A stretch of 58,582 nucleotides of DNA. Source: an uncultured Faecalibacterium sp. GTDB taxonomy: Bacteria > Bacillota > Clostridia > Oscillospirales > Ruminococcaceae. Made by a program: the position numbers and the translations under genes. This document shows, one piece after another, positions 6,943-18,509 of this stretch (position 1 is its first letter; every line of letters starts with the position of its first letter). The stretch lies in NCBI GenBank assembly GCA_904394215.1, contig CAJFNF010000016.1, positions 1 to 58,582 on the forward strand, in the 5' to 3' direction. Under the pieces are notes generated by a model. That model was not told the DNA's origin. It searched no databases and worked only from the letters and a program-made list of their open reading frames with translations.

Positions 6943-7647
6943 TTACTCCTGTTCCAGCTGGCGCCGCAGGTCCCGGATGATCCGCTTTTCCAGCCGGGAA
7001 ATATAGCTCTGGCTGATGCCGATGGCGTCGGCGGCCTCCTTCTGGGTGTGCTCCACCCCGTCCACCAGGCCGAACCGCAGCTCCATGATCTGCCGTTCCC
7101 GGGCGCTGAGCCGCTCCACCGACCGGCGCAGCACCGCACGCTCGGCGTTCTGTTCCAGCCGCTGGCCCACCTGGTTCTCGTCGGTGCCCAGCACGTCGGA
7201 CAACAGCAGCTCGTTGCCGTCGCTGTCCACGTTGAGGGGCTCGTCGATGCTGGCCTCCTGGCGGCGGTTGGAAGTCTTGCGCAGGTACATCAGGATTTCA
7301 TTGCCGATGCACCGGCTGGCATAGGTGGCCAGCTTGATGTTCCGCTCCAGGGTGAAGGTGTTCACCGCCTTGATCAGGCCGATGGTGCCGATGGACACCA
7401 GATCCTCCGAGGGCACCCCGCTGGATTCAAACTTCCTGGATAAGTACACCACCAGCCGCAGGTTGTGGGTGATCAGCTCATCCCGGGCGGCCTGGTCCCC
7501 GGCAGCCATCCGGCCCAGCAGCTCCTTTTCCTGATCAGGGGTCAGGGGCGGGGGCAGGCTGGGGCCCCCGGTCAGATAGTGGACCGCCCCCCAGGCCCCC
7601 GCCCGGGCCCACCATTTCCGCCATACCATCACAATCCAGTTCAGCAT
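6943..7647 (-). CDS. sigE: Pro-sigma-E, mother-cell sporulation sigma factor
   Basis: Sigma-E runs early mother-cell transcription and is made as an inactive precursor cleaved by SpoIIGA. The 234-residue product has the membrane-binding pro-sequence (about residues 1-30, rich in Trp, Arg and Ala) followed by LPPPL, the HNLRLVVYLSRKF and DLVSIGTIGLIKAVNTF region 2 motifs, the DEPLNVDSDGNELLLSDVLGTD linker and the region 4 HTH ending ISQSYISRLEKRII. Start ATG 7647 has a GGGGGAGA site. It lies 18 bases downstream of spoIIGA, so protease and substrate are co-expressed. Sigma-E would act on the spoIIID promoter at 5646 and probably on yabP. Confidence 0.97.
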   Translation of the reverse strand: MLNWIVMVWRKWWARAGAWGAVHYLTGGPSLPPPLTPDQEKELLGRMAAGDQAARDELITHNLRLVVYLSRKFESSGVPSEDLVSIGTIGLIKAVNTFTLERNIKLATYASRCIGNEILMYLRKTSNRRQEASIDEPLNVDSDGNELLLSDVLGTDENQVGQRLEQNAERAVLRRSVERLSARERQIMELRFGLVDGVEHTQKEAADAIGISQSYISRLEKRIIRDLRRQLEQE

Positions 7648-7665
7648 ACCGATCTCCCCCTTGTC

Positions 7666-8520
7666 TCAGGATAATCCCATCCGGCCCGCCAGGTCGGACC
7701 CCAGCAGCAATGTCCACCCCTCCCCGGCGCCCCCGGGGCAAAAGGCGGCCAGCAGGCCCTCGGCCCGCCAGCTGCGGCCTCCGGCCTGGCGGCACAGGGC
7801 ATCCGCCGGCACCGCCGGCAGCAGGGTCCGGCCGGCGATGGTGCCACAGACCAGATACCGCAGCCCCAAAGCCGGGTCGGGCAGCCCGCCGGTGCCCTCC
7901 AGCGCGGCGTCCAGCCCATCCCGCCAGGCCTGGGGCAGGGCGCCCCGCACCGCCCCATACTGGACCAGTACCACCGGTCGCCCCGCCACCGGGTCGGCCA
8001 GGGTGAAGCCGCTGTCATAAAAGGCCTCCACCGGGATCTTCGCCCCGCCCAGCTCCAGCCAGGCGGGCACCGCCGCACGGTCGGGCCGGCCCAGCAGGCT
8101 CATCAGCCCCCGCACCGCCAGATACACCGCCGCCGTCCCCGCCAGCAGCCGCCCCGGGGTGATATCCAGATAGGCGGTGAGATTGGCGGCGCGGCCTCCC
8201 GGCACCAGGGCTGCGGCCCCGGTCAGCAGCAGGTTGAGGGCCAGGAACCAGCCCCCCAGCCGCCCAAACACCCGGGCGCCCGGCCAGCCGTAGGCCAGGG
8301 CCACCGCCCCGGCGCCCGCCGCCGCCTTGTATAGCAGCGCCAGGCCCAAAGGCAGCGGCGGCGCCAGCAGCACCAGGCAGCTGGCCGCCCCCAGGGCAGC
8401 CCCGGCGGCAACCCGGACCCCGCGGCCCCGGACCCCCGCCAGCAGCCCGGCAGCCAGCAGAAAGGCCGCCGACGCTGCAAAATTCGTCAAGAGCAATTCA
8501 TCTATGTACAGAACTTTCAC
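7666..8520 (-). CDS. spoIIGA: Sigma-E processing peptidase SpoIIGA
   Basis: SpoIIGA is a membrane aspartic protease that removes the pro-sequence of sigma-E after a forespore signal. The 284-residue protein begins MKVLYIDELLLTNF, the typical family start, has an N-terminal hydrophobic half with about five membrane segments (to about residue 142), then a soluble domain with the catalytic D-S-G motif at 169-171 (FYDSGFTLADP; Bacillus has D-T-G). The start is GTG at 8520; no ATG lies nearby and the ribosome-binding site is weak. It is followed by sigE after 18 bases. Sequence is diverged and Ala/Gly-rich, but context and motif make the call firm. Confidence 0.92.
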   Translation of the reverse strand: MKVLYIDELLLTNFAASAAFLLAAGLLAGVRGRGVRVAAGAALGAASCLVLLAPPLPLGLALLYKAAAGAGAVALAYGWPGARVFGRLGGWFLALNLLLTGAAALVPGGRAANLTAYLDITPGRLLAGTAAVYLAVRGLMSLLGRPDRAAVPAWLELGGAKIPVEAFYDSGFTLADPVAGRPVVLVQYGAVRGALPQAWRDGLDAALEGTGGLPDPALGLRYLVCGTIAGRTLLPAVPADALCRQAGGRSWRAEGLLAAFCPGGAGEGWTLLLGSDLAGRMGLS

Positions 8521-8691: not shown

Positions 8692-8765
8692 GCCTCTTTA
8701 GCTCAGTCGGTTAGAGCACCTGACTGTTAATCAGGGTGTCGCCTGTTCGAGTCAGGCAAGAGGCG
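8692..8765 (+). tRNA. tRNA-Asn (anticodon GTT)
   Basis: A complete cloverleaf can be drawn: a perfect 7-bp acceptor stem (8692-8698 with 8758-8764), D arm GCTC/GAGC, anticodon stem CCTGA/TCAGG around loop CTGTTAA (anticodon GTT, 8726-8728), a 5-base variable loop, T arm GCCTG/CAGGC with TTCGAGT, and discriminator G at 8765. CCA is not encoded. It has its own promoter and terminator. An accessory gene island begins downstream, a common arrangement at tRNA genes, but no duplicated tRNA end was seen. Confidence 0.97.
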
Positions 8766-8772
8766 CTTGGTC

Positions 8773-8802
8773 AGCACAGATCGGTCCGATCTGTGCTTTT
8801 TT
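8773..8802 (+). terminator. Intrinsic terminator after tRNA-Asn
   Basis: A near-perfect palindromic stem of about 10-12 bp (8773-8784 with 8786-8797) is followed by six T residues. Confidence 0.88.
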
Positions 8803-9239: not shown

Positions 9240-11570
9240 ATGCGTTATACTTATGTGCGGCAGCACGACACCACAGACTGCGCGGCTGCCTGCCTCGCGA
9301 TGGTGTGCCTGCACTACCGAAAGGAAATCACCATCACGCGGCTGCGTGATATGATGGGCACCGACCTGAAAGGCACCAATCTGGTTGGCCTGCAGAAGGC
9401 GGCCAACGAGCTGGGGTTCACCTCAGCGGCCGTCCGGGTTGACCGCGAAAACTTTCTCAGCGACTTTTCTCTTCCCTGCATTGCGCAGGAGATTACCGAC
9501 CAGGGCTTGACCCACTTTGTGGTCGTATTCAAGAAAACCACCATTCCTGACGAGGCCGCCCGCCGCAAGCACATGCTGAAGGTGACCGAGGAAAAGGAAG
9601 AAGCCGAAAAAACCGGCAAAAAGTACAAGGACAAGGAATACGTCATCGTCGGCGACCCGGCCACCGAGCTGCGGAAGATGACCCTTGACGAGTTCTACAA
9701 GAACTTTACCGGCGTGCTTCTGCTGCTCAACCCCACCGCTGATTTCCAGCCGGGCAAGGTTGAACAGGGCAGTATGTTCAAGCGATACATGAACCTGCTG
9801 CTGCCCCAGAAGAAGCTGTTTGCTTACGCCATTCTCAGTTCGATTCTGCTCACCATCCTGGGCATCGCCTCTTCCCTGTTCAACAAGATCCTGATGGACG
9901 AGGTGCTTCCCTACGGGCTGCAGAATCTGCTGCTGACGCTGGTCCTGGTGTTCAGCGTCGTCAATATTACTTCAGCAGTCATCACCTTTGTGCGGCAGTG
10001 GATTCTGGTCCATCTGTCCATCAAGATTGATATACCGATGATGCTTGGCTACTTCGGGCACATTTACAAGCTGCCCATGAAGTTCTTCGCCACCCGCAAA
10101 ACCGGTGATATCACCACCCGCTACTCCGACGCCAACACCATCAAGTCCATCTTCACCAGCATTGCGCTGAGCCTGATCATGGACATTGCGATGGCAGTCG
10201 TCACCGGCATCATCCTCTTCAAGATGAATGCCGCCCTCTTTTCGGTCTCCCTGTTCATGACGCTGGTCAGCATCCTGCTGGTGCTGGTGTACAAGCGCCC
10301 CTACAAGAAGATCAATGAGGAGACGATGCAGCAGGCGTCCGTCCTGAACAGCCAGATGATCGAGGGCCTGCGGGGCATCGAGACCATCAAGTGCAACGCA
10401 GGCGAGGACAACGAGCTGGAGCGTCTGGAGCGGGAATACATCAAGAGCCTGAAGATCAGCATCCGGTCCAGCAAACTTTCCACCGTCCAGACGCTGATCA
10501 CCACCCTGATCACCACAGGCTTCTCGATGCTGACCACCTACATCGGCATTACCCAAGTGCTGCAGGGTGACATCACCCTGGGTTCGTTTATGGCGTTCAG
10601 TACCCTGTCCAGCTATTTTACCAACCCGGTGAGCAACCTTGTGAGCCTGCAGCTCCAGATCCAGGAAGCCTCCATTTCGATGAAGCGCCTGACTGAGATT
10701 ATGGACTATGAGACCGAGCAGTCGGACGACCAGGAACACACCGAACTCGAGCAGATCGAGGGCGACATCGAATTCCGGGACGTCACCTTCCGCTACGGCA
10801 ACCGCAACCCGGCTTTGGACCACGTTTCCTTCACCATTCCCGCAGGGAAAAAGGTGGCGCTGGTTGGTTCTTCGGGCAGCGGCAAATCCACCATCACCAA
10901 ACTGCTGCTCAAGTATTATGAGCCGGAGTCGGGTGAGATCCGGGTGAATGGCGTCAACCTGGACGAGTATACCAATGACTCGGTCCGCCGCGCCATCTCC
11001 TATGTTCCGCAGAACATTGAGCTTTTCAGCAAGACCATCCTGGACAATATCCGCATCTCGCGCCCTGACGCGACGGTGGATGAAGTCAAGGAGGCGGCCA
11101 AAAAGGCGGATGCCCACGAGTTTATCCGCAAGCTGCCGCTGCAGTACTACACCTACCTGGAGGAGGCCGGCAACGGCCTGTCCGGCGGTGAGAAGCAGCG
11201 GATCGCGCTGGCCCGGGCATTCCTGAAAAACTCAAACCTCTATATTTTGGACGAATCCACGAGCAACCTCGACTTTGCTACAGAGAATGCCATCTTTGAC
11301 ATGATCTACAACCAGCTGGCCGACCGCTCGATGCTGATTGTCGCCCACCGCCTTTCCACCGTCCGCGGCTGTGACGAGATCCTCGTGATGGACGAGGGCC
11401 ATGTGGTTGAGCGGGGTACTCACGATGAGCTGATGGCCAAGCAGGGCAAGTATTACGCCCTGTGGAACCTGCAGCAGGGCATCTTCCGCAGACGGGAAGA
11501 GCCCAAACCGGTTGTTGAGACGGTCGGCGCCTCTGTTGATGAGGACGACGATGACTCGATGACCTACTGA
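9240..11570 (+). CDS. Peptidase-containing (C39) ABC exporter for double-glycine leader peptides
   Basis: This 776-residue half-transporter would cleave leader peptides at Gly-Gly and export the cargo. Domains in order: C39 peptidase with catalytic Cys14 (QHDTTDCAAACLAM, with DCA instead of the usual DCG), His92 (LTHFVVVF) and Asp139 (VGDP); six membrane segments about 195-455; ATPase with Walker A GSSGSGKS (543-550), signature LSGGEKQ (647-653), Walker B LYILDE (667-672) and His703. Between His92 and Asp139 there is an unusual charged Lys/Glu-rich stretch (about 99-132) longer than in typical C39 domains. The tail ends in an acidic run (767-772). ATG 9240 follows AAAGGA. Two leader-bearing small proteins lie directly downstream and are the likely substrates. 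Codon choice is visibly less GC-biased than in neighbouring core genes, hinting at horizontal acquisition. Confidence 0.93.
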   Translation: MRYTYVRQHDTTDCAAACLAMVCLHYRKEITITRLRDMMGTDLKGTNLVGLQKAANELGFTSAAVRVDRENFLSDFSLPCIAQEITDQGLTHFVVVFKKTTIPDEAARRKHMLKVTEEKEEAEKTGKKYKDKEYVIVGDPATELRKMTLDEFYKNFTGVLLLLNPTADFQPGKVEQGSMFKRYMNLLLPQKKLFAYAILSSILLTILGIASSLFNKILMDEVLPYGLQNLLLTLVLVFSVVNITSAVITFVRQWILVHLSIKIDIPMMLGYFGHIYKLPMKFFATRKTGDITTRYSDANTIKSIFTSIALSLIMDIAMAVVTGIILFKMNAALFSVSLFMTLVSILLVLVYKRPYKKINEETMQQASVLNSQMIEGLRGIETIKCNAGEDNELERLEREYIKSLKISIRSSKLSTVQTLITTLITTGFSMLTTYIGITQVLQGDITLGSFMAFSTLSSYFTNPVSNLVSLQLQIQEASISMKRLTEIMDYETEQSDDQEHTELEQIEGDIEFRDVTFRYGNRNPALDHVSFTIPAGKKVALVGSSGSGKSTITKLLLKYYEPESGEIRVNGVNLDEYTNDSVRRAISYVPQNIELFSKTILDNIRISRPDATVDEVKEAAKKADAHEFIRKLPLQYYTYLEEAGNGLSGGEKQRIALARAFLKNSNLYILDESTSNLDFATENAIFDMIYNQLADRSMLIVAHRLSTVRGCDEILVMDEGHVVERGTHDELMAKQGKYYALWNLQQGIFRRREEPKPVVETVGASVDEDDDDSMTY

Positions 11571-11576
11571 TGGTGC

Positions 11577-11633
11577 AACCAGGTGCGCACCTGGTTACAT
11601 AAATGATTCCCGTCCGGTTGCGCAACCGAACGG
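11577..11633. repeat. Two adjacent palindromes between exporter and peptide genes
   Basis: A perfect 20-bp palindrome (11577-11596, core GGTGCGCACC) and, 13 bases on, a 24-bp palindrome with one mismatched pair (11610-11633, core GGTTGCGCAACC) sit just after the exporter stop. They could be paired operator sites or, in mRNA, two stable hairpins separating exporter and peptide cistrons; a TTTTTT run follows at 11645-11650. Confidence 0.7.
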
Positions 11634-11681
11634 CAATCGACACATTTTTTCGTTTCAATCATTTGAAGGGAGTAATTCATT

Positions 11682-12023
11682 ATGATGATGCCTGCAAACT
11701 ACTCTGTTATCGCAGAGAACGAAATGACCTACGTCCTGATGACCGCTTCCAACTGGAAGACCTTCAACACCAACCTGATCAAGATCATCGGCAACACCTT
11801 CATTCAGCCCGTTGTCGACGCTACCCTGGGCGTTATGTTCGGCGGCAACTGGGGCAATGGTGAGAGCCTGTTCGGCAAGGGCGGCGAGATCTCCGGCTTC
11901 TACACCGGCGACAAGACTGTCCTGAACAAGATCATGGGCACCCTGGGCGGCCTGGCTGCTGTCTACACCCTGGGCACCGGCGACGCTAAGACTGTCCACA
12001 CCGACAGCGTTGTCAAGTTCTAA
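11682..12023 (+). CDS. Leader-type small secreted-peptide paralogue lacking the double-glycine site
   Basis: 113 residues (111 if the third of three tandem ATGs is used); AAGGGAG lies 9 bases upstream. The N-terminus PANYSVIAENEMTYV matches the leader of the next gene (PANYAVIAEDELTYV), and the core shares NWKTF-TN, KI-GNTF, LG-FG-N and GGLAA-YTLGTGDAKT. Compared with that paralogue, a 12-residue block containing the Gly-Gly-Gly cleavage site and the first mature residues is absent, so the predicted C39 cut site is gone. It is glycine-rich and moderately hydrophobic with no classical signal peptide. It may be a non-processed partner, an immunity-like or decoy protein, or an allele in decay; function unknown. 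It sits between the exporter and the intact paralogue. Confidence 0.8.
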   Translation: MMMPANYSVIAENEMTYVLMTASNWKTFNTNLIKIIGNTFIQPVVDATLGVMFGGNWGNGESLFGKGGEISGFYTGDKTVLNKIMGTLGGLAAVYTLGTGDAKTVHTDSVVKF

Positions 12024-12059
12024 GTCAGATTCATTCCAAATTAAGAAAGGTGGTTTATC

Positions 12060-12440
12060 ATGACCTTTCCTGCAAATTACGCAGTAATTGCAGAGGATGA
12101 GCTGACTTATGTCACCGGCGGCGGCGTGATCGCAAATGTTCTGCCCGCTGTTATGACCGCTGACAACTGGAAGACTTTCAGCACCAACGTTGTCAAGATC
12201 GTTGGCAACACCTTCATGAGCGGCTTTGTGAGCACTGTTCTGGGCACCGTTTTTGGTACCAACTATGCTTTCGGCGCTGTTTCTGATAAGATCGGCACCA
12301 AGCTGGCTGGCATGGACTTCCTGAATGGTGCTATGCAGGTTGTGGGCGGCCTGGCTGCCATCTACACCCTGGGCACTGGTGACGCAAAGACCGAGCATGT
12401 TGAGAACGTTACCACTGTCAACCCCACTACTGCTGCTTAA
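12060..12440 (+). CDS. Double-glycine leader peptide precursor, candidate bacteriocin-like or signalling cargo
   Basis: 126 residues with an AAAGGTGG site ahead of ATG 12060. Residues 1-21 form a leader (NYAVIAEDELTYVTGG) ending in Gly20-Gly21(-Gly22), the type cut by C39 exporters such as the one encoded upstream. The mature part would be about 104 residues, long for a class II bacteriocin. It is Gly/Ala/Val/Thr-rich with hydrophobic stretches (about 44-66 and 91-104), no cysteines and therefore no disulfides or lanthionines, and a polar Thr/Asn-rich end. It is paralogous to the preceding gene along most of its length. I recognise no named family. Codon use is less GC-rich than in the chromosome around it. 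A strong terminator follows at 12528. Confidence 0.82.
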   Translation: MTFPANYAVIAEDELTYVTGGGVIANVLPAVMTADNWKTFSTNVVKIVGNTFMSGFVSTVLGTVFGTNYAFGAVSDKIGTKLAGMDFLNGAMQVVGGLAAIYTLGTGDAKTEHVENVTTVNPTTAA

Positions 12441-12527
12441 GTCTCATTCAGCTCTGATTCCGATTGCAAGTGTATTTTAGTCTGACCCCGCCCCCCGGGG
12501 TTGGGGCAGATCAAAATGCCTCGTTAT

Positions 12528-12569
12528 GGTGTGCCAGGAGGCAAGTCCTCCTGGCGCACCTTATTTTTT
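12528..12569 (+). terminator. Strong intrinsic terminator after the peptide genes
   Basis: A 14-bp stem with one G-T pair (12528-12541 with 12547-12560), 5-base loop, then TTATTTTTT. It ends the exporter-peptide unit. Confidence 0.9.
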
Positions 12570-12589
12570 GCAATTTTTATCTCTGCAGC

Positions 12590-12759
12590 TTGCCTGTTCC
12601 ATCCGACCGGATGCGACAGGCAAAAGCGGACGGTGAGCGTATCCGATTCAGTGATCACCGCCGGCTTTTGCCTGCTGCGCCCCGCATGGCCCCCTGCCCC
12701 GCCCTCTTTGCGGCGGACGGGCGGTTCTGTGCGGCCAGAGGGACGAAGTGCAGGGGCAT
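12590..12759 (+). promoter_or_regulatory. Structured leader with mutually exclusive hairpins before the accessory genes
   Basis: This gene-free stretch is full of long complementary blocks: TTGCCTGT (12590-12597) with ACAGGCAA (12616-12623), reinforced by CATCC/GGATG; AGGCAAAAGC (12618-12627) with GCTTTTGCCT (12664-12673), enclosing CGGTGA/TCACCG; and CCCCTGC (12691-12697) with GCAGGGG (12750-12756), enclosing CCCTCT/AGAGGG. The first two helices share bases 12618-12623, so only one can form at a time, as in attenuators or riboswitches. No clear promoter was found between the terminator at 12528 and here. Function is unknown. Confidence 0.5.
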
Positions 12760-12784
12760 ACTTTAATCAAACAGGTGAAACATT

Positions 12785-13240
12785 ATGCATGAAATTCAAG
12801 TAAGTGAAAGCAAAACCCTCAAGCTCACCAACGTGCTCAGCCGCCGCATTATGCCCGAGGAGTTCGCCAACATCAACCTGATCGTCACCCAGATGGAGAA
12901 CTTTGTCCGCAGCCACGATGCCCAGCCCATCGGCCCCCTGGTGCAGCACGTTGTGATGACCAAGGGCCCCAAGCCGGAAGTCCAGATGTACCTGCTGCGC
13001 CAGGCCAACCAGATGATCCCCCGGCTGGACCCCCAGTATCACATGGATGCTGTGCTGCGGGTGAAGGACTGCCTGTACGCCCATTACATGGGCCCCATGA
13101 GCCGCAGCGAGCTGGCTTCCCAGAAGCTGAACATCCTGGCCTTTGAGCAGGATCTCAAGCTGTCGGGCAGCGTGTACAGCGTCTTTGTCAGCCAGGACGA
13201 CGACGACAGCGTCGTGGACGTCTTTATGGAAAAGGAATAA
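12785..13240 (+). CDS. Unknown 151-residue cytosolic protein of the exporter island, possibly GyrI-like fold
   Basis: No signal peptide or membrane segment. The pattern (mixed N-terminal part, IGPLVQHVVM, VLRVKDCLYAHYMGPMSR about midway, closing YSVFVSQDDDDSVVDVFME) resembles effector-binding GyrI/AraC-C-type or DUF5085-like domains with a strand-helix-strand repeat, but similarity is loose. It starts with ATG 12785 behind a modest AGGTGA and ends 5 bases before the HlyD-type gene, so it is translated with the accessory exporter genes. It may sense a ligand, chaperone the peptides or act in immunity. The acidic run near the C-terminus echoes the acidic tail of the exporter. Confidence 0.6.
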   Translation: MHEIQVSESKTLKLTNVLSRRIMPEEFANINLIVTQMENFVRSHDAQPIGPLVQHVVMTKGPKPEVQMYLLRQANQMIPRLDPQYHMDAVLRVKDCLYAHYMGPMSRSELASQKLNILAFEQDLKLSGSVYSVFVSQDDDDSVVDVFMEKE

Positions 13241-13245
13241 CTCTT

Positions 13246-14361
13246 ATGACCAACATTCGTGTCACCAACCTGTACGATCTGCAGGACCGCCGGATCATGA
13301 TGGAGAAAAAGCTGCCCCCCTACGGGTATGCCCTGCTCCTGATTGTCGCCGCCCTGATGGTGGGTCTGGTGATTTGGAGCACCGTGACCCCGCGGATTTA
13401 TATCTCCCAGCTTTCGGGCACCGTGCAGGCCACCAACAAGACCTACATCATGTCCTCTTACTCGGGCCAGATCACCGAGCTGAACGTCTCGGAGGGCAGC
13501 TACGTGGAGGCCGGGGACCTGATCGCTCATATCAAGAGCTCCGACCTGGACCTGCAGCAGAGCCAGCTGGAAAACCAGCTGGAAATCTACCAGACCCAGC
13601 TGGCCCAGTACAACAAGCTGATCCAGTCCATCCAGGACAACACCAACTATTTCAGCGAGACCGACCCGGCCGACCAGTCCTACTACTACCAGTACGAGAA
13701 CTACCAGAGCCAGGTGGCCCAGCACACCTTTGATTCCTCCTCCTACCAGGCGGCGGGCTATACCGAGGCCCAGATCCAGGCCCTGATGGAGCAGAACCAG
13801 AGCGAGCTGGAACAGATTTACTACTCGGCCCTGCAGTCTGCTGCCCAGAATGTCAGCAGCATCCAGGCCAACATTGAAAACGTCCAGTCCCAGCTGGATG
13901 CCCTGAGCACCGGCGCCAACGATTACTACATCTATGCGCCCACCTCGGGCGTCATCCACATGGACAGCCCCTACAGCGTAGGGATGGTGCTGTCGGCGGG
14001 CTCGGTGCTGGCCACCGTTTCCAGCGAGAACTCGGACTATGAGATCGTGGCCTATGCCTCCCTCAGCGACCGTCCCCTGCTGGATGTGGGCGACCCCTGC
14101 ACCATCGCCGTCACCGGCCTGGCCCAGACGGCCTACGGCACCCTTACCGGCACCGTTACCGCTATCGACAGCGACGTGACCACCAGCAACAACACCTCCT
14201 TCTACAAGGTCACCGTCAAGCCGGACAGCACCTACCTGATCAGCAAGAGCGGCGACCAGGTGGATCTGTCCAACGGCATGAGCGTCACCGCCCGGGTCCA
14301 GTACGACGAGGTGACCTACTTCCAGTATGCGCTGGAAGCCCTGGGCGTCCTGGTGCGCTGA
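13246..14361 (+). CDS. HlyD-family membrane fusion/accessory protein of the peptide exporter
   Basis: 371 residues: short cytoplasmic N-terminus, one membrane segment (about 27-46), a lipoyl/barrel half (YIMSSYSGQITELNVSEGSYVEAGDLI, about 71-98), a Gln-rich coiled coil (about 100-230), the second lipoyl half (YYIYAPTSGVIHMDSPYSVGMVLSAGSVLATVSS, about 228-262) and a beta-barrel end. This is the adaptor architecture that partners C39 ABC exporters (ComB/MesE/LcnD type) and supports cargo passage across the cell wall. Its separation from the exporter gene by a terminator and structured leader suggests independent tuning. Start ATG 13246 overlaps the ribosome-binding region of the previous gene's end. 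Confidence 0.9.
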   Translation: MTNIRVTNLYDLQDRRIMMEKKLPPYGYALLLIVAALMVGLVIWSTVTPRIYISQLSGTVQATNKTYIMSSYSGQITELNVSEGSYVEAGDLIAHIKSSDLDLQQSQLENQLEIYQTQLAQYNKLIQSIQDNTNYFSETDPADQSYYYQYENYQSQVAQHTFDSSSYQAAGYTEAQIQALMEQNQSELEQIYYSALQSAAQNVSSIQANIENVQSQLDALSTGANDYYIYAPTSGVIHMDSPYSVGMVLSAGSVLATVSSENSDYEIVAYASLSDRPLLDVGDPCTIAVTGLAQTAYGTLTGTVTAIDSDVTTSNNTSFYKVTVKPDSTYLISKSGDQVDLSNGMSVTARVQYDEVTYFQYALEALGVLVR

Positions 14362-14423
14362 GGCTTTTCCCTGATTTCCGGCGGGGATGCTTCCCCCTGG
14401 TTTTGTCCGCAACGAGGTACAAC

Positions 14424-15896
14424 ATGAAGTTTTTTGCAAAACGGCTGCCGGCCCTGCTGCTGCTGGCCGCCCTGACTGTCAGCGCGGCCCAGCCCGCCGC
14501 CGCCCTTCAGCTGCCCTCCCTCAACTGGCCTTCCTTTGGCAAGGAAGAGGTGGCTGTGGAAAGCATTGATCCCGGCTCCTACGAGGCCGAGATGACCGTG
14601 GGCACCACCCAGCAGCTGAAACCCACCGTTCTGCCCGACAACGCCACCGACAAGGAAGTGGTCTTTGCCTCGGAGGACATCAGCATCATCCAGGTGGGCC
14701 AGGACGGCCTGATCGGCGCCGCATCGGTGGGCTCCACCCGGGTATCGGCCACCGCCGGCGGTGTGACCATCTACTACGACATCACCGTCACCCCTGACCC
14801 TTCCACCGTGGTGTCCGACATGGACGCCGCCATCTCCCAGGAGGAGATCGCGGTGGGCGGCACCGCCACCATCTCGGTGTCGGTGAGCCCCAGTTCGGCG
14901 GCCTCTACCGCCAGCGTGACCTTCACCTCTTCCAATGAGTCTGTGGCCACCGTCAACAACTTTGGCCGGGTCACCGCTGTGGGCAAGGGCAGCGCCACCA
15001 TCACCATCACCTGCGGCGACATCGTCCGCACCGTCAACGTGAAGGTGTACATTCCCACCGACGGCATCCATCTGAACACCAACTACCTGGTTCTGAAGCC
15101 GGGGGCCACCGCCCAGATCACCGGCAGCGTCTCCCCTTCCACGGCGCCCCAGACCCTGACCTTCAAGTCCAGTGACACCAAGGTGGCCACTGTCAGCGGA
15201 AATGGCACTGTAACGGCTGTGGGGGTGGGCTCCACCTCCATCATCGTCTCCAACGGGGACTCCTCCAGCATGGTGACGGTGATCGTCAACCAGGGCACCA
15301 GCCAGAACACCGCCGGCAGCGGCTCCGGCTCGGGCGCCGACAGCGGTGCTGACAGCGAAACCACCGCCGAGGACCCCATCGTCCAGCAGATCAACGACCC
15401 CCAGATTGAACTGGTGAACCTGAACCAGGGGGACATCCCCACCATTACCACCCAGATGCTGGACGCCCTGCGCCGCACCGGTAAGACCATGAACGTCACC
15501 GGCGACGGCTATGTGCTGACCATCCGGGGCACCGACATCCGCAACACCCAGAACGCCCTGTCCACGGCGGTGACCTTCACCCCCAGCGAAGAGGGGCTGG
15601 AATTCAGTCTGAATGAGGGCGGCGCCATGCCTTGTGCCGTCAGCCTGACCCTCACCGGGGACAACGCCAGCTACAGCCGGCTGTACCTGTACAACGAGGC
15701 TACCCAGCAGTGGCAGTACCTGAACAGCTATGCAGACAGCGTGGTCACCACCGACACGGCGGGCCGCTATCTGCTGACCAACAACACACTGACCTTCGTC
15801 CACATGAACTTTTACGCCCTGGTTGCCGCAGGCGTGGTCCTGGTGGCCATCATTGTGGTGTACATTGTGGTGAAAAAGAGGTATTGGTTCTGGTGA
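14424..15896 (+). CDS. Membrane-anchored surface protein with three BIG2 domains
   Basis: 490 residues. A cleavable signal peptide (MKFFAKRLPALLLLAALTVSAAQPAAA), three bacterial Ig-like (BIG2) repeats (about 45-120, 130-205, 212-290; repeated SxxxSVATV and GxAxITV-type motifs), a Gly/Ser/Asp linker (about 295-330), a further beta-rich domain (about 335-455) and a C-terminal membrane helix (about 462-483) with basic tail KKRYWFW. It is therefore anchored in the membrane and projects through the wall. Start ATG 14424 has GAGG upstream. It closes the exporter island and could dock, display or give immunity to the exported peptides; no direct evidence. An intrinsic terminator follows. Confidence 0.85.
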   Translation: MKFFAKRLPALLLLAALTVSAAQPAAALQLPSLNWPSFGKEEVAVESIDPGSYEAEMTVGTTQQLKPTVLPDNATDKEVVFASEDISIIQVGQDGLIGAASVGSTRVSATAGGVTIYYDITVTPDPSTVVSDMDAAISQEEIAVGGTATISVSVSPSSAASTASVTFTSSNESVATVNNFGRVTAVGKGSATITITCGDIVRTVNVKVYIPTDGIHLNTNYLVLKPGATAQITGSVSPSTAPQTLTFKSSDTKVATVSGNGTVTAVGVGSTSIIVSNGDSSSMVTVIVNQGTSQNTAGSGSGSGADSGADSETTAEDPIVQQINDPQIELVNLNQGDIPTITTQMLDALRRTGKTMNVTGDGYVLTIRGTDIRNTQNALSTAVTFTPSEEGLEFSLNEGGAMPCAVSLTLTGDNASYSRLYLYNEATQQWQYLNSYADSVVTTDTAGRYLLTNNTLTFVHMNFYALVAAGVVLVAIIVVYIVVKKRYWFW

Positions 15897-15932: not shown

Positions 15933-15985
15933 AAGCACACAAAGCCCTGTCTCCCACCGGAGGCGGGGCTTTGTGCTTTTCTTTT
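15933..15985 (+). terminator. Intrinsic terminator ending the exporter island
   Basis: AAGC/GCTT, ACAAAGCCC/GGGCTTTGT and CTCC/GGAG pairings with a 2-base bulge, then TTTTCTTTT. Confidence 0.85.
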
Positions 15986-16588: not shown

Positions 16589-18409
16589 TTACTCTACCGT
16601 GACACTCTTGGCCAGGTTCCGGGGTTTATCCACGTCGCAGCCACGGAGCACCGCCATGTAGTAGGCGAACAGCTGCAGCGGCACAATCAGCTGCAGGGGC
16701 ATCAGGATGTCCTCGTACTGGTCCAGCCGCACCACATAGTCGGCGATGCCCTCCGGCACCACCGCATCCTTGGTGGTGAACAGCAGCACCTTGGCCCCCC
16801 GGCTCTTGGTTTCCTTGGCGTTGGACAGGGTCTTCTCATAGACCTTGTGCTGGGTGGCCAGGACGATCACCGGCACCCCGTCGGTCACCAGGCTGATGGT
16901 GCCGTGCTTCAGCTCCCCGGCCGCGTAAGCGTCCGAATGGACGTAGCTGATCTCCTTCAGCTTGAGGCTCCCCTCCAGGGACAGGGCGTAGTCGAAGCCC
17001 CGGCCAATGAAAAAGCAGCTCTGGGTGTTTACAAACAGGCTAGCCAGGTATTTGATATACTCACAGTCATCCAGCCGGGGCTTCACAACCTCCGGCGCCC
17101 GCTGCAGCTGGGCGGTGTTGCGGCGGGTTTCGGCCTCGGTCAGCTTGCCGCGGGCATAGGCCAGCCGCAGGGCAAACAGGTACAGCACGCACATCTGAAC
17201 CATATAGGCCTTGGTGGAGGCCACCGCAATCTCGGGGCCGGCGTAGGTGTACATCACATAATCTGCGGCCCGGGCAATGGAACTGCCCACCACATTGACG
17301 ATGGCCAGCACCGGCACCCCCTGGCTCTTGGCCAGTTTCAGGGCCGCCAGGGTGTCGCTGGTCTCGCCCGACTGGCTGATGATGATCACCAGGTCCTCGG
17401 GGCTGAGGATGGGGTCCCGGTAACGGAACTCGCTGGCAATGTCCACCTCTGCCGGCAGCCGGGCCAGGGTCTCGATGGCGGCCTTGCCCACCATGCCGGC
17501 GTGCATGGCGGTACCGCAGGCCACCAGGTGGATCCGCTGGATGGCCGCCAGCCGTTCATCGGTGAGGGCCGGGATCCGCAGGCTGGGCATCCCGTCCTCC
17601 ACCCGGGGCCCTACCGTGGCGGTGATGGCGGCGGGCTGTTCGTTGATTTCCTTCAGCATGAAGTGGGGATATCCGCCCTTTTCGGCGGCCTCCACATCCC
17701 AGTCGGCGGTGAGGCGCTCCCGCTGGACGGGGCGCCCAAACTCGTCATAGAAGGTGACTGCACCGGCGGTGCAGACCACCATGTCCCCTTCCTCCAGGAC
17801 GCTGTAGCTGCGGGTATATTTCAGGATGGCGGGGATATCCGAGGCCAGGAAGTTCTCCCCTTCCCCATAGCCCACGATCAGGGGGCTCTCCCGCCGGACC
17901 GCAAACAGGGTGTCGGGCCAGTCCCGGAACAGGACCGCCAGGGCGTAGCTGCCCCGCACCCGGGCCAGGGCCTCGGTGAGGGCCTTCAGGGGCTCCCCCT
18001 GGTAGCAGCTGTCAATCAGCTTCACCAGCACCTCGGTGTCGGTCTCGCTGACAAAGGTGTACCCCTTGGCCTCCAGCATCTCCTTCAGGGCGCCGTAGTT
18101 CTCGATGATGCCATTGTGCACGATGCTCACATAGGGGGTGGAGTGGGGATGGCTGTTGACGTCGCTGGGCTCCCCGTGGGTGGCCCAGCGGGTATGGCCG
18201 ATGCCGCAGTGGGTCACAGGCAGGTTCTCCTGTTCCAGCTTGGCCCGCAGGGCGGCCAGCCGCCCCTTGGTTTTCACCACGCGGATGGCGTCCCCGGTTT
18301 CCAGGGCCACGCCGGCCGAGTCATAGCCCCGGTACTCCAGCTTGGTCAGACCATCCAGCAATACGTCCTGGGCGCAGCGGGCGCCCACGTAGCCTACAAT
18401 GCCACACAT
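16589..18409 (-). CDS. glmS: Glutamine-fructose-6-phosphate aminotransferase GlmS
   Basis: GlmS makes glucosamine 6-phosphate from fructose 6-phosphate and glutamine, the entry step to peptidoglycan amino sugars. The 606-residue protein begins MCGIVGYVG, so Cys2 is the N-terminal nucleophile after Met removal. The glutaminase half shows YRGYDSAGVAL, HTRWATHGEPSDVNSHPH and HNGIIENY; the isomerase half has two SIS domains (ACGTAMHAG, SQSGETSDTL, FIGRGFDYALSLEGSLKLKEISYVHSDAYAAGELKHG) and ends with the conserved KSVTVE. ATG 18409 is preceded by GGAGGTG. The 5' leader carries a glmS ribozyme, so the mRNA should self-cleave when the product accumulates. Dispersed element copy A begins just past the stop. 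Confidence 0.98.
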   Translation of the reverse strand: MCGIVGYVGARCAQDVLLDGLTKLEYRGYDSAGVALETGDAIRVVKTKGRLAALRAKLEQENLPVTHCGIGHTRWATHGEPSDVNSHPHSTPYVSIVHNGIIENYGALKEMLEAKGYTFVSETDTEVLVKLIDSCYQGEPLKALTEALARVRGSYALAVLFRDWPDTLFAVRRESPLIVGYGEGENFLASDIPAILKYTRSYSVLEEGDMVVCTAGAVTFYDEFGRPVQRERLTADWDVEAAEKGGYPHFMLKEINEQPAAITATVGPRVEDGMPSLRIPALTDERLAAIQRIHLVACGTAMHAGMVGKAAIETLARLPAEVDIASEFRYRDPILSPEDLVIIISQSGETSDTLAALKLAKSQGVPVLAIVNVVGSSIARAADYVMYTYAGPEIAVASTKAYMVQMCVLYLFALRLAYARGKLTEAETRRNTAQLQRAPEVVKPRLDDCEYIKYLASLFVNTQSCFFIGRGFDYALSLEGSLKLKEISYVHSDAYAAGELKHGTISLVTDGVPVIVLATQHKVYEKTLSNAKETKSRGAKVLLFTTKDAVVPEGIADYVVRLDQYEDILMPLQLIVPLQLFAYYMAVLRGCDVDKPRNLAKSVTVE

Positions 18410-18509
18410 AAGCAAAACACCTCCATGCCGGCAGGAACCCCCGCCTTTCAGGGCAGGGCCTGCTCAGCTTCCCGGGCGGCCCGGGGGCCGCCTGTACGAT
18501 TGTATTCAC

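What the first reader, a model, noticed from the sequence alone, without database searches (positions are those of the whole stretch)
9240..15896. Candidate undescribed peptide-export system: C39 ABC exporter, two paralogous leader peptides, HlyD adaptor, BIG2 surface protein and an unknown cytosolic partner
Seen: exporter with intact Cys14/His92/Asp139, an Asn-Tyr-x-Val-Ile-Ala-Glu-x-Glu leader ending in Gly-Gly, paralogous cargo, HlyD-type adaptor, membrane-anchored three-BIG2 protein, all on one strand between a tRNA and glmS, bounded by terminators and less GC-biased in codon use at the exporter and peptide genes. Known: C39 exporters plus HlyD proteins secrete double-glycine peptides. Inference: the long (about 104 residue) cysteine-free cargo is not a standard class II bacteriocin, and a dedicated wall-spanning anchored protein may display or neutralise it.
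Basis: partly seen in the sequence, partly recalled or inferred. Interest (0 to 1): 0.78.

Follow-up and report, generated by a model that had tools for sequence, protein, structure and literature searches.

The report
MAM export locus with GyrI-fold partner
This is the Faecalibacterium locus that exports MAM, an already described anti-inflammatory surface protein, and its unknown small gene turns out to encode a drug-binding-type fold that is found with the same exporter, carrying other cargoes, in other bacteria.

Summary
The genes are real, but the system is not undescribed: it is the mam locus of a Faecalibacterium (PCAT exporter, two MAM paralogues, a small protein, HlyD, Ig-domain protein), reported for F. 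prausnitzii (PMC8836110, PMC12184118). Correction: only the second peptide has Gly-Gly; the first lacks it, alone among 39 MAMs compared (36-nt in-frame gap).

New here: (1) MAM, PCAT and the 151-aa protein occur in the same 26 of 31 genus genomes, one PCAT each. (2) The order PCAT, GG cargo, 151-aa, HlyD, BIG2 recurs outside the genus. (3) The 151-aa protein has a GyrI-like fold (pLDDT 94.4; Foldseek probability 1.00) and is distantly related to DUF5085, of which studied members bind glycine-zipper toxins in the producer. (4) Outside the genus, cargoes are more hydrophobic and usually have a membrane-protein gene beside them; the Faecalibacterium loci read have none. (5) Five further GG-leader proteins in this genome have no other PCAT found. 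(6) Faecalibacterium PCATs carry a charged insertion near the active site.

Best reading: the 151-aa protein holds hydrophobic cargo before export, and MAM derives from a bacteriocin-type cargo. Both are inferred, not shown.

The parts
8692..8766 (+). tRNA-Asn (gtt), left border
   Evidence: ARAGORN; a tRNA-Asn is found upstream in 18 of 19 named Faecalibacterium loci
8773..8797 (+). terminator-like hairpin after the tRNA
9240..11570 (+). PCAT: C39 peptidase + ABC exporter (776 aa), Gln8/Cys14/His92/Asp139, with a charged insertion between His92 and Asp139
11682..12023 (+). mam1: MAM paralogue, 113 aa, leader helix kept, 12 residues including Gly-Gly absent (36-nt in-frame gap)
12060..12440 (+). 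mam2: MAM paralogue, 126 aa, leader ends at Gly20-Gly21(-Gly22)
12528..12560 (+). terminator-like hairpin after mam2 (14 pairs)
12785..13240 (+). p151: 151-aa protein without signal or membrane segment, GyrI-like fold (duplicated strand-helix-strand-strand), distant relative of DUF5085
13246..14361 (+). HlyD-type adaptor (371 aa)
   Evidence: Pfam HlyD_3 75.3 bits; below the cut-offs of TIGR01000 and TIGR01843
14403..15896 (+). BIG2 surface protein (497 aa from TTG; an ATG lies 7 codons in, at 14424): signal-like N-terminus (my reading), three Big_2, C-terminal hydrophobic segment, tail KKRYWFW
15938..15975 (+). terminator-like hairpin closing the locus (17 pairs)

Best explanation
This is the MAM export locus of an uncultured Faecalibacterium. 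The PCAT's C39 domain removes the double-glycine leader and its ABC part pushes the mature cargo out; HlyD continues the path across the wall; the membrane-anchored BIG2 protein stands at the surface end. The 151-aa protein (p151) is a cytosolic GyrI-fold protein. My most likely role for it: it shields the hydrophobic, export-competent cargo in the cytosol before the PCAT takes it, as the DUF5085 proteins TipE and ExiAB bind glycine-zipper T7SS toxins. Because p151 is found once per exporter and is more conserved than the cargo, a generic holdase is likelier than a cognate antitoxin. The same machine is found with bacteriocin-like cargoes in other Clostridia. In Faecalibacterium the cargo became MAM, the neighbouring immunity-like membrane gene is absent, and the PCAT gained an insertion. 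Shown: gene set, homology, co-occurrence, predicted fold, leader. Inferred: cleavage, export, p151 binding, display by BIG2, direction of evolution.
For: MAM identity: the profile of the two window peptides finds MAM in 26 of 31 genus genomes at E below 1e-19 (a 27th hit, G414 at E 7.9e-4, is a different GG peptide). One of them (L096) is a 135-aa protein ending in Val, as the paper states for F. duncaniae MAM. Genus: same-genus contigs have the lengths of named Faecalibacterium records. PCAT, p151 and MAM fall in the same 26 of 31 genomes. Order PCAT-p151-HlyD-BIG2 in 26 of 26. Outside the genus: of 23 loci with a near full-length p151 match, an HlyD lies downstream within 0.8 kb in 21; PCAT sequence lies upstream in 15 of the 16 with at least 1.5 kb upstream (in L141 only its C-terminal part), and downstream in the 16th. 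p151 fold: pLDDT 94.4, E-H-E-E twice; Foldseek CTR107, CtaZ, BmrR, EcmrR, GyrI, probability 1.00. Profile match 99.5%, E 8e-23, to five proteins (three near PCATs); of four of these scanned, one passes the GyrI-like and one the Cass2 cut-off. DUF5085 proteins bind glycine-zipper toxins: PMC10434224, PMC12744356 (passages). A pneumococcal PCAT locus also lists a GyrI-like protein, rtgX (PMC7018657, passages).
Against: No interaction of p151 with any cargo is shown. GyrI-like proteins usually bind small molecules. The structural matches are at TM about 0.5-0.7 and 4-6.5 A. DUF5085 matches of the p151 family itself stay weak (4 of 32 members up to E 0.1, best E 1.4e-4; 16-20 bits against a cut-off of 30 for two members). 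Glycine zippers: MAMs have 52 against a shuffle mean of 31 (29 of 39 with one, shuffle mean 19.7), but relatedness is ignored; the other cargoes have 23 against 14.7 (p 0.033) and only 8 of 19 have one, below the shuffle mean of 9.0. 8 of 26 genomes have mam away from the PCAT locus. mam1 has no Gly-Gly to be cut at. MAM itself was folded poorly (pLDDT 48.8).
Confidence: 0.55

Rival explanations
1. p151 is a ligand sensor: a stand-alone GyrI-like domain that binds a small molecule and sets expression or gating of the exporter.
For: The fold is that of BmrR, EcmrR, BrlR and Rob effector domains.
Against: p151 is one GyrI-like domain without room for a DNA-binding domain. It sits between cargo and adaptor, and in all 26 Faecalibacterium loci its match ends 5-18 bp before the HlyD match begins, as expected of a machine part.
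Confidence: 0.2
2. p151 is an immunity or sequestration protein that protects the producer from the exported cargo or another compound, like CtaZ or TipE, and is not needed for export.
For: CtaZ, a self-resistance protein (role recalled), is among the best folds; TipE and ExiAB protect against their toxins.
Against: Immunity proteins track their toxins; here one conserved p151 accompanies very different cargoes, and outside the genus a separate ORF with two or more membrane stretches sits between PCAT and p151 in 13 of 15 loci read. No toxicity of MAM is reported in the parts of the papers that I read.
Confidence: 0.2
3. An ordinary class II bacteriocin cluster: mam1 and mam2 are a two-peptide bacteriocin and the accessory genes are standard.
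For: GG leader, C39 exporter, HlyD; 4 of 5 non-Faecalibacterium cargoes scanned weakly resemble Bacteriocin_IIc (E 0.014-0.73, below cut-off).
Against: No family match for MAM; MAM is reported as the most abundant envelope protein with a lattice on the surface (PMC12184118); 36 of 39 MAMs lack a strongly hydrophobic stretch; no immunity-like ORF in the gap in 12 of 12 Faecalibacterium loci read; mam1 has no Gly-Gly.
Confidence: 0.08
4. Side question, not exclusive of the others: the missing Gly-Gly of mam1 is an assembly error between two similar neighbouring genes, and the locus is a plain two-MAM locus.
For: Draft genome in 88 contigs; 38 of 39 MAMs compared have Gly-Gly; a relative's mam1 (L079) is nearly the same as mam2 over the missing 36 nt.
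Against: The gap is in frame, the rest of mam1 is intact and distinct from mam2, and the contig is continuous.
Confidence: 0.4

Closest known systems
mam locus of Faecalibacterium prausnitzii / F. duncaniae (PMC8836110, PMC12184118)
   Same: MAM with MMMPAN leader, PCAT with Cys14/His92 and an Asp, cluster of three ORFs (two of them HlyD and Ig-domain), tRNA neighbours, two mam genes in some strains
   Different: Here mam1 lacks Gly-Gly and mam2 begins MTFPAN; the papers assign no family to the remaining ORF and describe MAM as exclusive to Faecalibacterium (95.33% of their motif hits), whereas the exporter set is found here outside it with other cargoes
PCAT1 of Acetivibrio thermocellus (4ry2 and others) and ComA (8hf4)
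   Same: C39 domain plus ABC exporter; best sequence matches in the PDB; catalytic residues equated in PMC12184118
   Different: Faecalibacterium enzymes measured have 44-48 residues from His to Asp, against 16-20 in the 11 other PCATs measured
DUF5085 partners of T7SS LXG toxins: TipE, ExiA/ExiB (PMC10434224, PMC12744356)
   Same: Soluble (TipE is also 151 aa), GyrI-like fold (stated for ExiA/B), encoded with an exported membrane-active protein
   Different: Another secretion system; TipE and ExiAB are cognate to their toxins; p151 is below the DUF5085 cut-off and one per exporter
CtaZ and CTR107 (7zhe, 5kax), stand-alone GyrI-like proteins
   Same: Fold over the whole length
   Different: Solved with small ligands; no exporter context tested
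Pneumococcal rtg PCAT locus (PMC7018657)
   Same: PCAT, accessory protein, GG peptides and, in 21.1% of strains, a GyrI-like protein rtgX
   Different: No Ig-domain protein in the gene table seen; regulated by Rgg; rtgX sequence not compared

Membership tests
MAM (Microbial Anti-inflammatory Molecule) | Sequence homology to Faecalibacterium MAM | tested here: met
   mam1 44.9% and mam2 39.5% identical to the 135-aa MAM at L096, E 1.9e-25 and 1.2e-20
MAM (Microbial Anti-inflammatory Molecule) | Published leader signature MMMPANx(8,11)VxGG | tested here: not met
   mam1 has MMMPAN..V but no GG; mam2 has VTGG but MTFPAN. The signature is narrower than the homologous family, so both are filed as MAM homologues, not as signature-positive MAMs
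MAM (Microbial Anti-inflammatory Molecule) | Envelope lattice and NF-kB inhibition | not testable with these tools
   needs protein
Peptidase-containing ABC transporter | C39 peptidase with catalytic Cys, His, Asp, then ABC membrane and ATPase domains | tested here: met
   (TIGR01193 over cut-off)
HlyD / bacteriocin accessory protein | HlyD_3 domain | tested here: met
   75.3 bits against 22.2
HlyD / bacteriocin accessory protein | NCBIfam TIGR01000 (bacteriocin accessory) cut-off | tested here: not met
   92.4 against 258.85 bits; also below TIGR01843 (121.1 against 208.65)
GyrI-like superfamily (p151) | Duplicated strand-helix-strand-strand fold | tested here: met
   predicted model, pLDDT 94.4; Foldseek probability 1.00
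GyrI-like superfamily (p151) | Pfam PF06445 match of p151 itself | tested here: not met
   no match in window p151 nor in the members of A2 and A3 among the families listed; a distant relative, L179, scores 27.7 against 26
DUF5085 (p151) | PF16895 cut-off | tested here: not met
   window p151 has no match; 4 of 32 members match up to E 0.1, best 1.4e-4; L153 20.1 and L181 16.2 against 30 bits. So: possibly works like DUF5085, not filed as one
Class II bacteriocin | Double-glycine leader | tested here: inconclusive
   mam2 yes, mam1 no
Class II bacteriocin | Named family match | tested here: not met
Class II bacteriocin | Killing activity | not testable with these tools
   needs assay

The most novel reading that the evidence does not exclude
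A four-part Gram-positive export machine (PCAT, GyrI-fold cytosolic holdase, HlyD adaptor, anchored BIG2 protein with an aromatic tail), spread thinly over Clostridia and carrying membrane-active bacteriocin-type proteins, was taken over in the ancestor of Faecalibacterium to build its MAM surface coat. The immunity gene was lost, the cargo became less hydrophobic, and the peptidase gained an insertion. The anti-inflammatory MAM would thus be a domesticated bacteriocin-type cargo, and p151 a generic chaperone for PCAT cargo.
Probability: 0.35. Interest if true: 0.75.

Novelty: new variant of a known kind. Interest (0 to 1): 0.52.

Why it matters
MAM is a candidate for how a major gut commensal calms the intestine. 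The papers read here describe it as without relevant homologues, propose the PCAT as its transporter, and only suggest that the neighbouring ORF cluster shares in transport. The comparison gives it an export machine with defined parts, a testable ancestor (bacteriocin-type cargo), and a named fold for the unknown gene. It also suggests that the GyrI fold, known for small-molecule binding and recently for binding glycine-zipper toxins, serves protein export in a second secretion system.

Tried and rejected
Considered and rejected: recent horizontal acquisition (the locus follows tRNA-Asn in 18 of 19 and precedes glmS in 14 of 19 named loci; in L127 glmS lies on the other side, and four stretches hold none; Faecalibacterium p151 forms one clade, 100/100). 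BIG2 as neutraliser: no evidence. p151 as a member of a curated family by sequence alone: none reached. PDB sequence search with p151: two unrelated weak hits; with the outgroup, CtaZ at E about 0.5. MAM structure: prediction too poor to use (pLDDT 48.8); no fold search made.

Limits: the Gly-zipper and hydropathy comparisons do not correct for relatedness. The count of membrane ORFs between PCAT and p151 is not corrected for A+T content; in L140 no GG cargo was found, and in L093, one of the 12 Faecalibacterium loci, mam lies elsewhere. In the outside set, L159 was a 20-residue spurious match; L157, L158 and L160 were partial; L154 has an in-frame stop and was left out of alignment A3; L143 and L144 come from one MAG and L181 and L182 from one genome. 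The GG-cargo script found candidates in 16 of 22 stretches scanned; five gave none and one (L139) gave an ABC ATPase. The His-Asp script read 20 of 26 Faecalibacterium PCATs and 11 outside ones; the rest were not matched by its pattern or broken in frame.

Not in print, as far as the listings of searches show: no paper that joins MAM or PCAT with DUF5085, none seen that gives the exporter set outside Faecalibacterium, and only PMC7018657 joining 'peptidase-containing ABC transporter' with GyrI. The library is open-access only. Papers seen: PMC8836110 (abstract, results 2.1-2.5, discussion, legends, passages); PMC12184118 (abstract, introduction, two results sections, discussion parts 1-2, term search); PMC10434224, PMC12744356, PMC7018657, PMC13289728 (passages); all others in search listings only.
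Full report
What is there. Six genes lie on the + strand between a tRNA-Asn (8692-8766) and a glmS-like gene (16589-18415, - strand; my naming): a C39/ABC exporter, two short proteins, a 151-aa protein, an HlyD-type adaptor and a three-BIG2 protein. One point is wrong: only the second peptide has the double glycine. The first keeps the leader helix MMMPANYSVIAENEMTYV, but a 36-nt in-frame gap removes 12 residues including Gly-Gly. Among 39 MAM proteins collected from the genus it is the only one without Gly-Gly. A strong hairpin follows the second peptide gene (12528-12560) and another closes the locus (15938-15975), so the peptides and the 151-HlyD-BIG2 group may be separate or attenuated transcripts.

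What it is. A search with the 151-aa family in named genomes returned Faecalibacterium as the close relatives, 84-89% identical in seven records, among them An121, An122, Candidatus F. gallistercoris, F. faecigallinarum and F. intestinigallinarum (the window's own record is left out there, and its same-genus contigs match these records in length). The two peptides are homologues of MAM: the profile finds MAM in 26 of 31 genomes of the genus (the 27th hit, G414, is another GG peptide). One genome carries a 135-aa protein ending in Val, the length and end given for F. duncaniae MAM (PMC12184118). PMC8836110 already describes mam next to a PCAT and to three ORFs, two of them HlyD and Ig-domain proteins, with two mam genes in some strains and tRNA genes near. 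PMC12184118 reports MAM as the most abundant envelope protein, models PCAT cleavage at Gly-Gly and proposes a hexameric surface lattice. So the locus is known; the remaining ORF has no function there.

Co-occurrence in the genus. MAM, the 151-aa protein and a PCAT (one per genome) occur in the same 26 of 31 genomes. The order PCAT, 151, HlyD, BIG2 holds in 26 of 26 loci read, and BIG2 ends in KKRYWFW in 26 of 26. In 8 of these 26 the mam gene lies elsewhere in the genome. Of the five genomes without the set, G409, G414 and G415 are 77-89% complete, but G410 (93%) and G081 (99%) probably lack it; G081 has a different C39 match in a 293-aa frame.

Beyond the genus. One search returned 44 loci; 19 are Faecalibacterium and 25 are not, of which L159 is spurious and L157, L158 and L160 are partial. 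An HlyD lies downstream in 21 of 23, within 0.8 kb (in L141 counted for its first copy). PCAT sequence 60-73% identical lies upstream in 15 of the 16 with at least 1.5 kb upstream (only a C-terminal part in L141; cut by the contig end in L144 and L152); in the 16th, L156, a 46% identical one lies downstream. BIG2 follows in 15; of the other eight, five end within 1.9 kb of p151, but L153, L154 and L156 had room and no hit. Eleven of 13 readable BIG2 C-termini end in a related aromatic tail. Hosts include Ruminococcus MAGs, Acetivibrio alkalicellulosi, Galacturonibacter, Desulfotruncus, Pseudoflavonifractor, Lachnospiraceae and a Coriobacteriales MAG. The module is rare: 5 of 394 genomes sampled from the order (4 of them this genus) and 9 of 391 from the class, the own genome included; the four weakest of these nine, E 1e-11 to 1e-14, are distant relatives without the full module. 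GG-leader cargoes were found in 16 of 22 stretches scanned; most share a leader of the type MEMxYDGxLVMPxxYAxMxEEEMTYVEGG, with varied mature parts.

Two contrasts. First, the mature parts of outside cargoes have a 19-residue stretch of mean hydropathy 1.6 or more in 15 of 19, against 3 of 39 MAMs (relatedness not corrected). Second, an ORF with two or more such stretches, other than the cargo, lies in the PCAT-p151 gap in 13 of 15 outside loci and in 0 of 12 Faecalibacterium loci read. This is the place where bacteriocin immunity genes usually sit (general knowledge). The PCATs differ too: 44-48 residues separate His and Asp in the 20 Faecalibacterium enzymes that the script could read, against 16-20 in 11 others. 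Faecalibacterium p151 forms one clade with support 100/100 on a long stem (0.99). Together these suggest, without proving, that MAM derives from a bacteriocin-type cargo.

The unknown protein. p151 of the window matches no Pfam or NCBIfam model. Its wider family touches DUF5085 weakly (4 of 32 members, best E 1.4e-4). Five distant relatives, three of them with PCAT genes in the stretch read (L178, L179, L180), align with it profile to profile over 144 columns (probability 99.5%, E 8e-23); of the four of these scanned, one passes the GyrI-like cut-off (27.7 against 26) and another the Cass2 cut-off (32.8 against 27). The AlphaFold2 model has pLDDT 94.4 and two strand-helix-strand-strand units. 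Foldseek returns CTR107, CtaZ, BmrR, EcmrR and GyrI, and also SOUL haem-binding proteins, with probability 1.00 at TM 0.5-0.7. The fold is therefore GyrI-like. In T7SS, the DUF5085 protein TipE (also 151 aa) binds and antagonises the glycine-zipper toxin TelE (PMC10434224), and the ExiA-ExiB pair binds the zipper of EsxX in the cytoplasm and is described there as GyrI-like (PMC12744356). I infer that p151 holds hydrophobic cargo before export. It is one per exporter and keeps 57-89% identity to the window across the genus, while 30 of 38 other MAMs are below 57% identity to mam2 (range 31-80%), which favours a generic partner. A glycine-zipper count gives only weak support. A ligand sensor or a self-protection protein remains possible.

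Reach of the exporter. The genome has one PCAT but seven GG-type leaders by a 12-sequence leader profile, plus one marginal hit (E 0.009): the two MAMs, three on contig C53 and two on C3. The profile was built partly from these, so their detection is by construction. All five non-MAM proteins have a strongly hydrophobic stretch (1.98-2.38). If they are exported, this PCAT is the only candidate found, in a genome 93% complete.

Verdict. A known locus with an error in the reported anatomy, a newly placed partner protein, and a wider family than published. The mechanism of p151 is the open and testable part.

Noticed in passing
G000:C53, L111:7122-8464: Three GG-leader hydrophobic proteins lie in a row next to genes that look like an MBOAT acyltransferase and an AlgX/DHHW-like protein (my reading of the sequence, no family search). 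A similar arrangement occurs in genome G414 (L113).
   Followed up: partly
G000:C3, L112:6639-7405 (- strand): Two further GG-leader hydrophobic proteins on a contig where no PCAT was found.
   Followed up: partly
window 11682-12023: mam1 lacks Gly-Gly through a 36-nt in-frame gap, alone among 39 MAMs compared; real loss or assembly error cannot be told apart.
   Followed up: partly
window 9240-11570, residues about 98-132: Charged insertion between catalytic His and Asp, present in the 20 Faecalibacterium PCATs measured and absent from 11 others measured.
   Followed up: yes
window 15873-15896: BIG2 protein ends in KKRYWFW; the tail is kept in 26 of 26 Faecalibacterium loci and in related form in 11 of 13 readable outside loci.
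   Followed up: yes
L101:4563-6889: The PCAT of genome G417 is read in two frames (203-aa first frame), so it may be broken or mis-sequenced while the rest of the module is found.
   Followed up: no
L141:21-13402: Galacturonibacter has two copies of part of the module with a repeated 425-aa transposase-like ORF (my reading) between and within them; the second copy has a shortened HlyD and BIG2.
   Followed up: no
L181, L182: One genome carries two modules with different cargoes, each with a PCAT read in more than one frame.
   Followed up: no
window 6943-8520 (- strand): Sigma-factor and SpoIIGA-like genes (my naming) precede the tRNA, in line with the sporulation cluster reported near mam.
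   Followed up: partly
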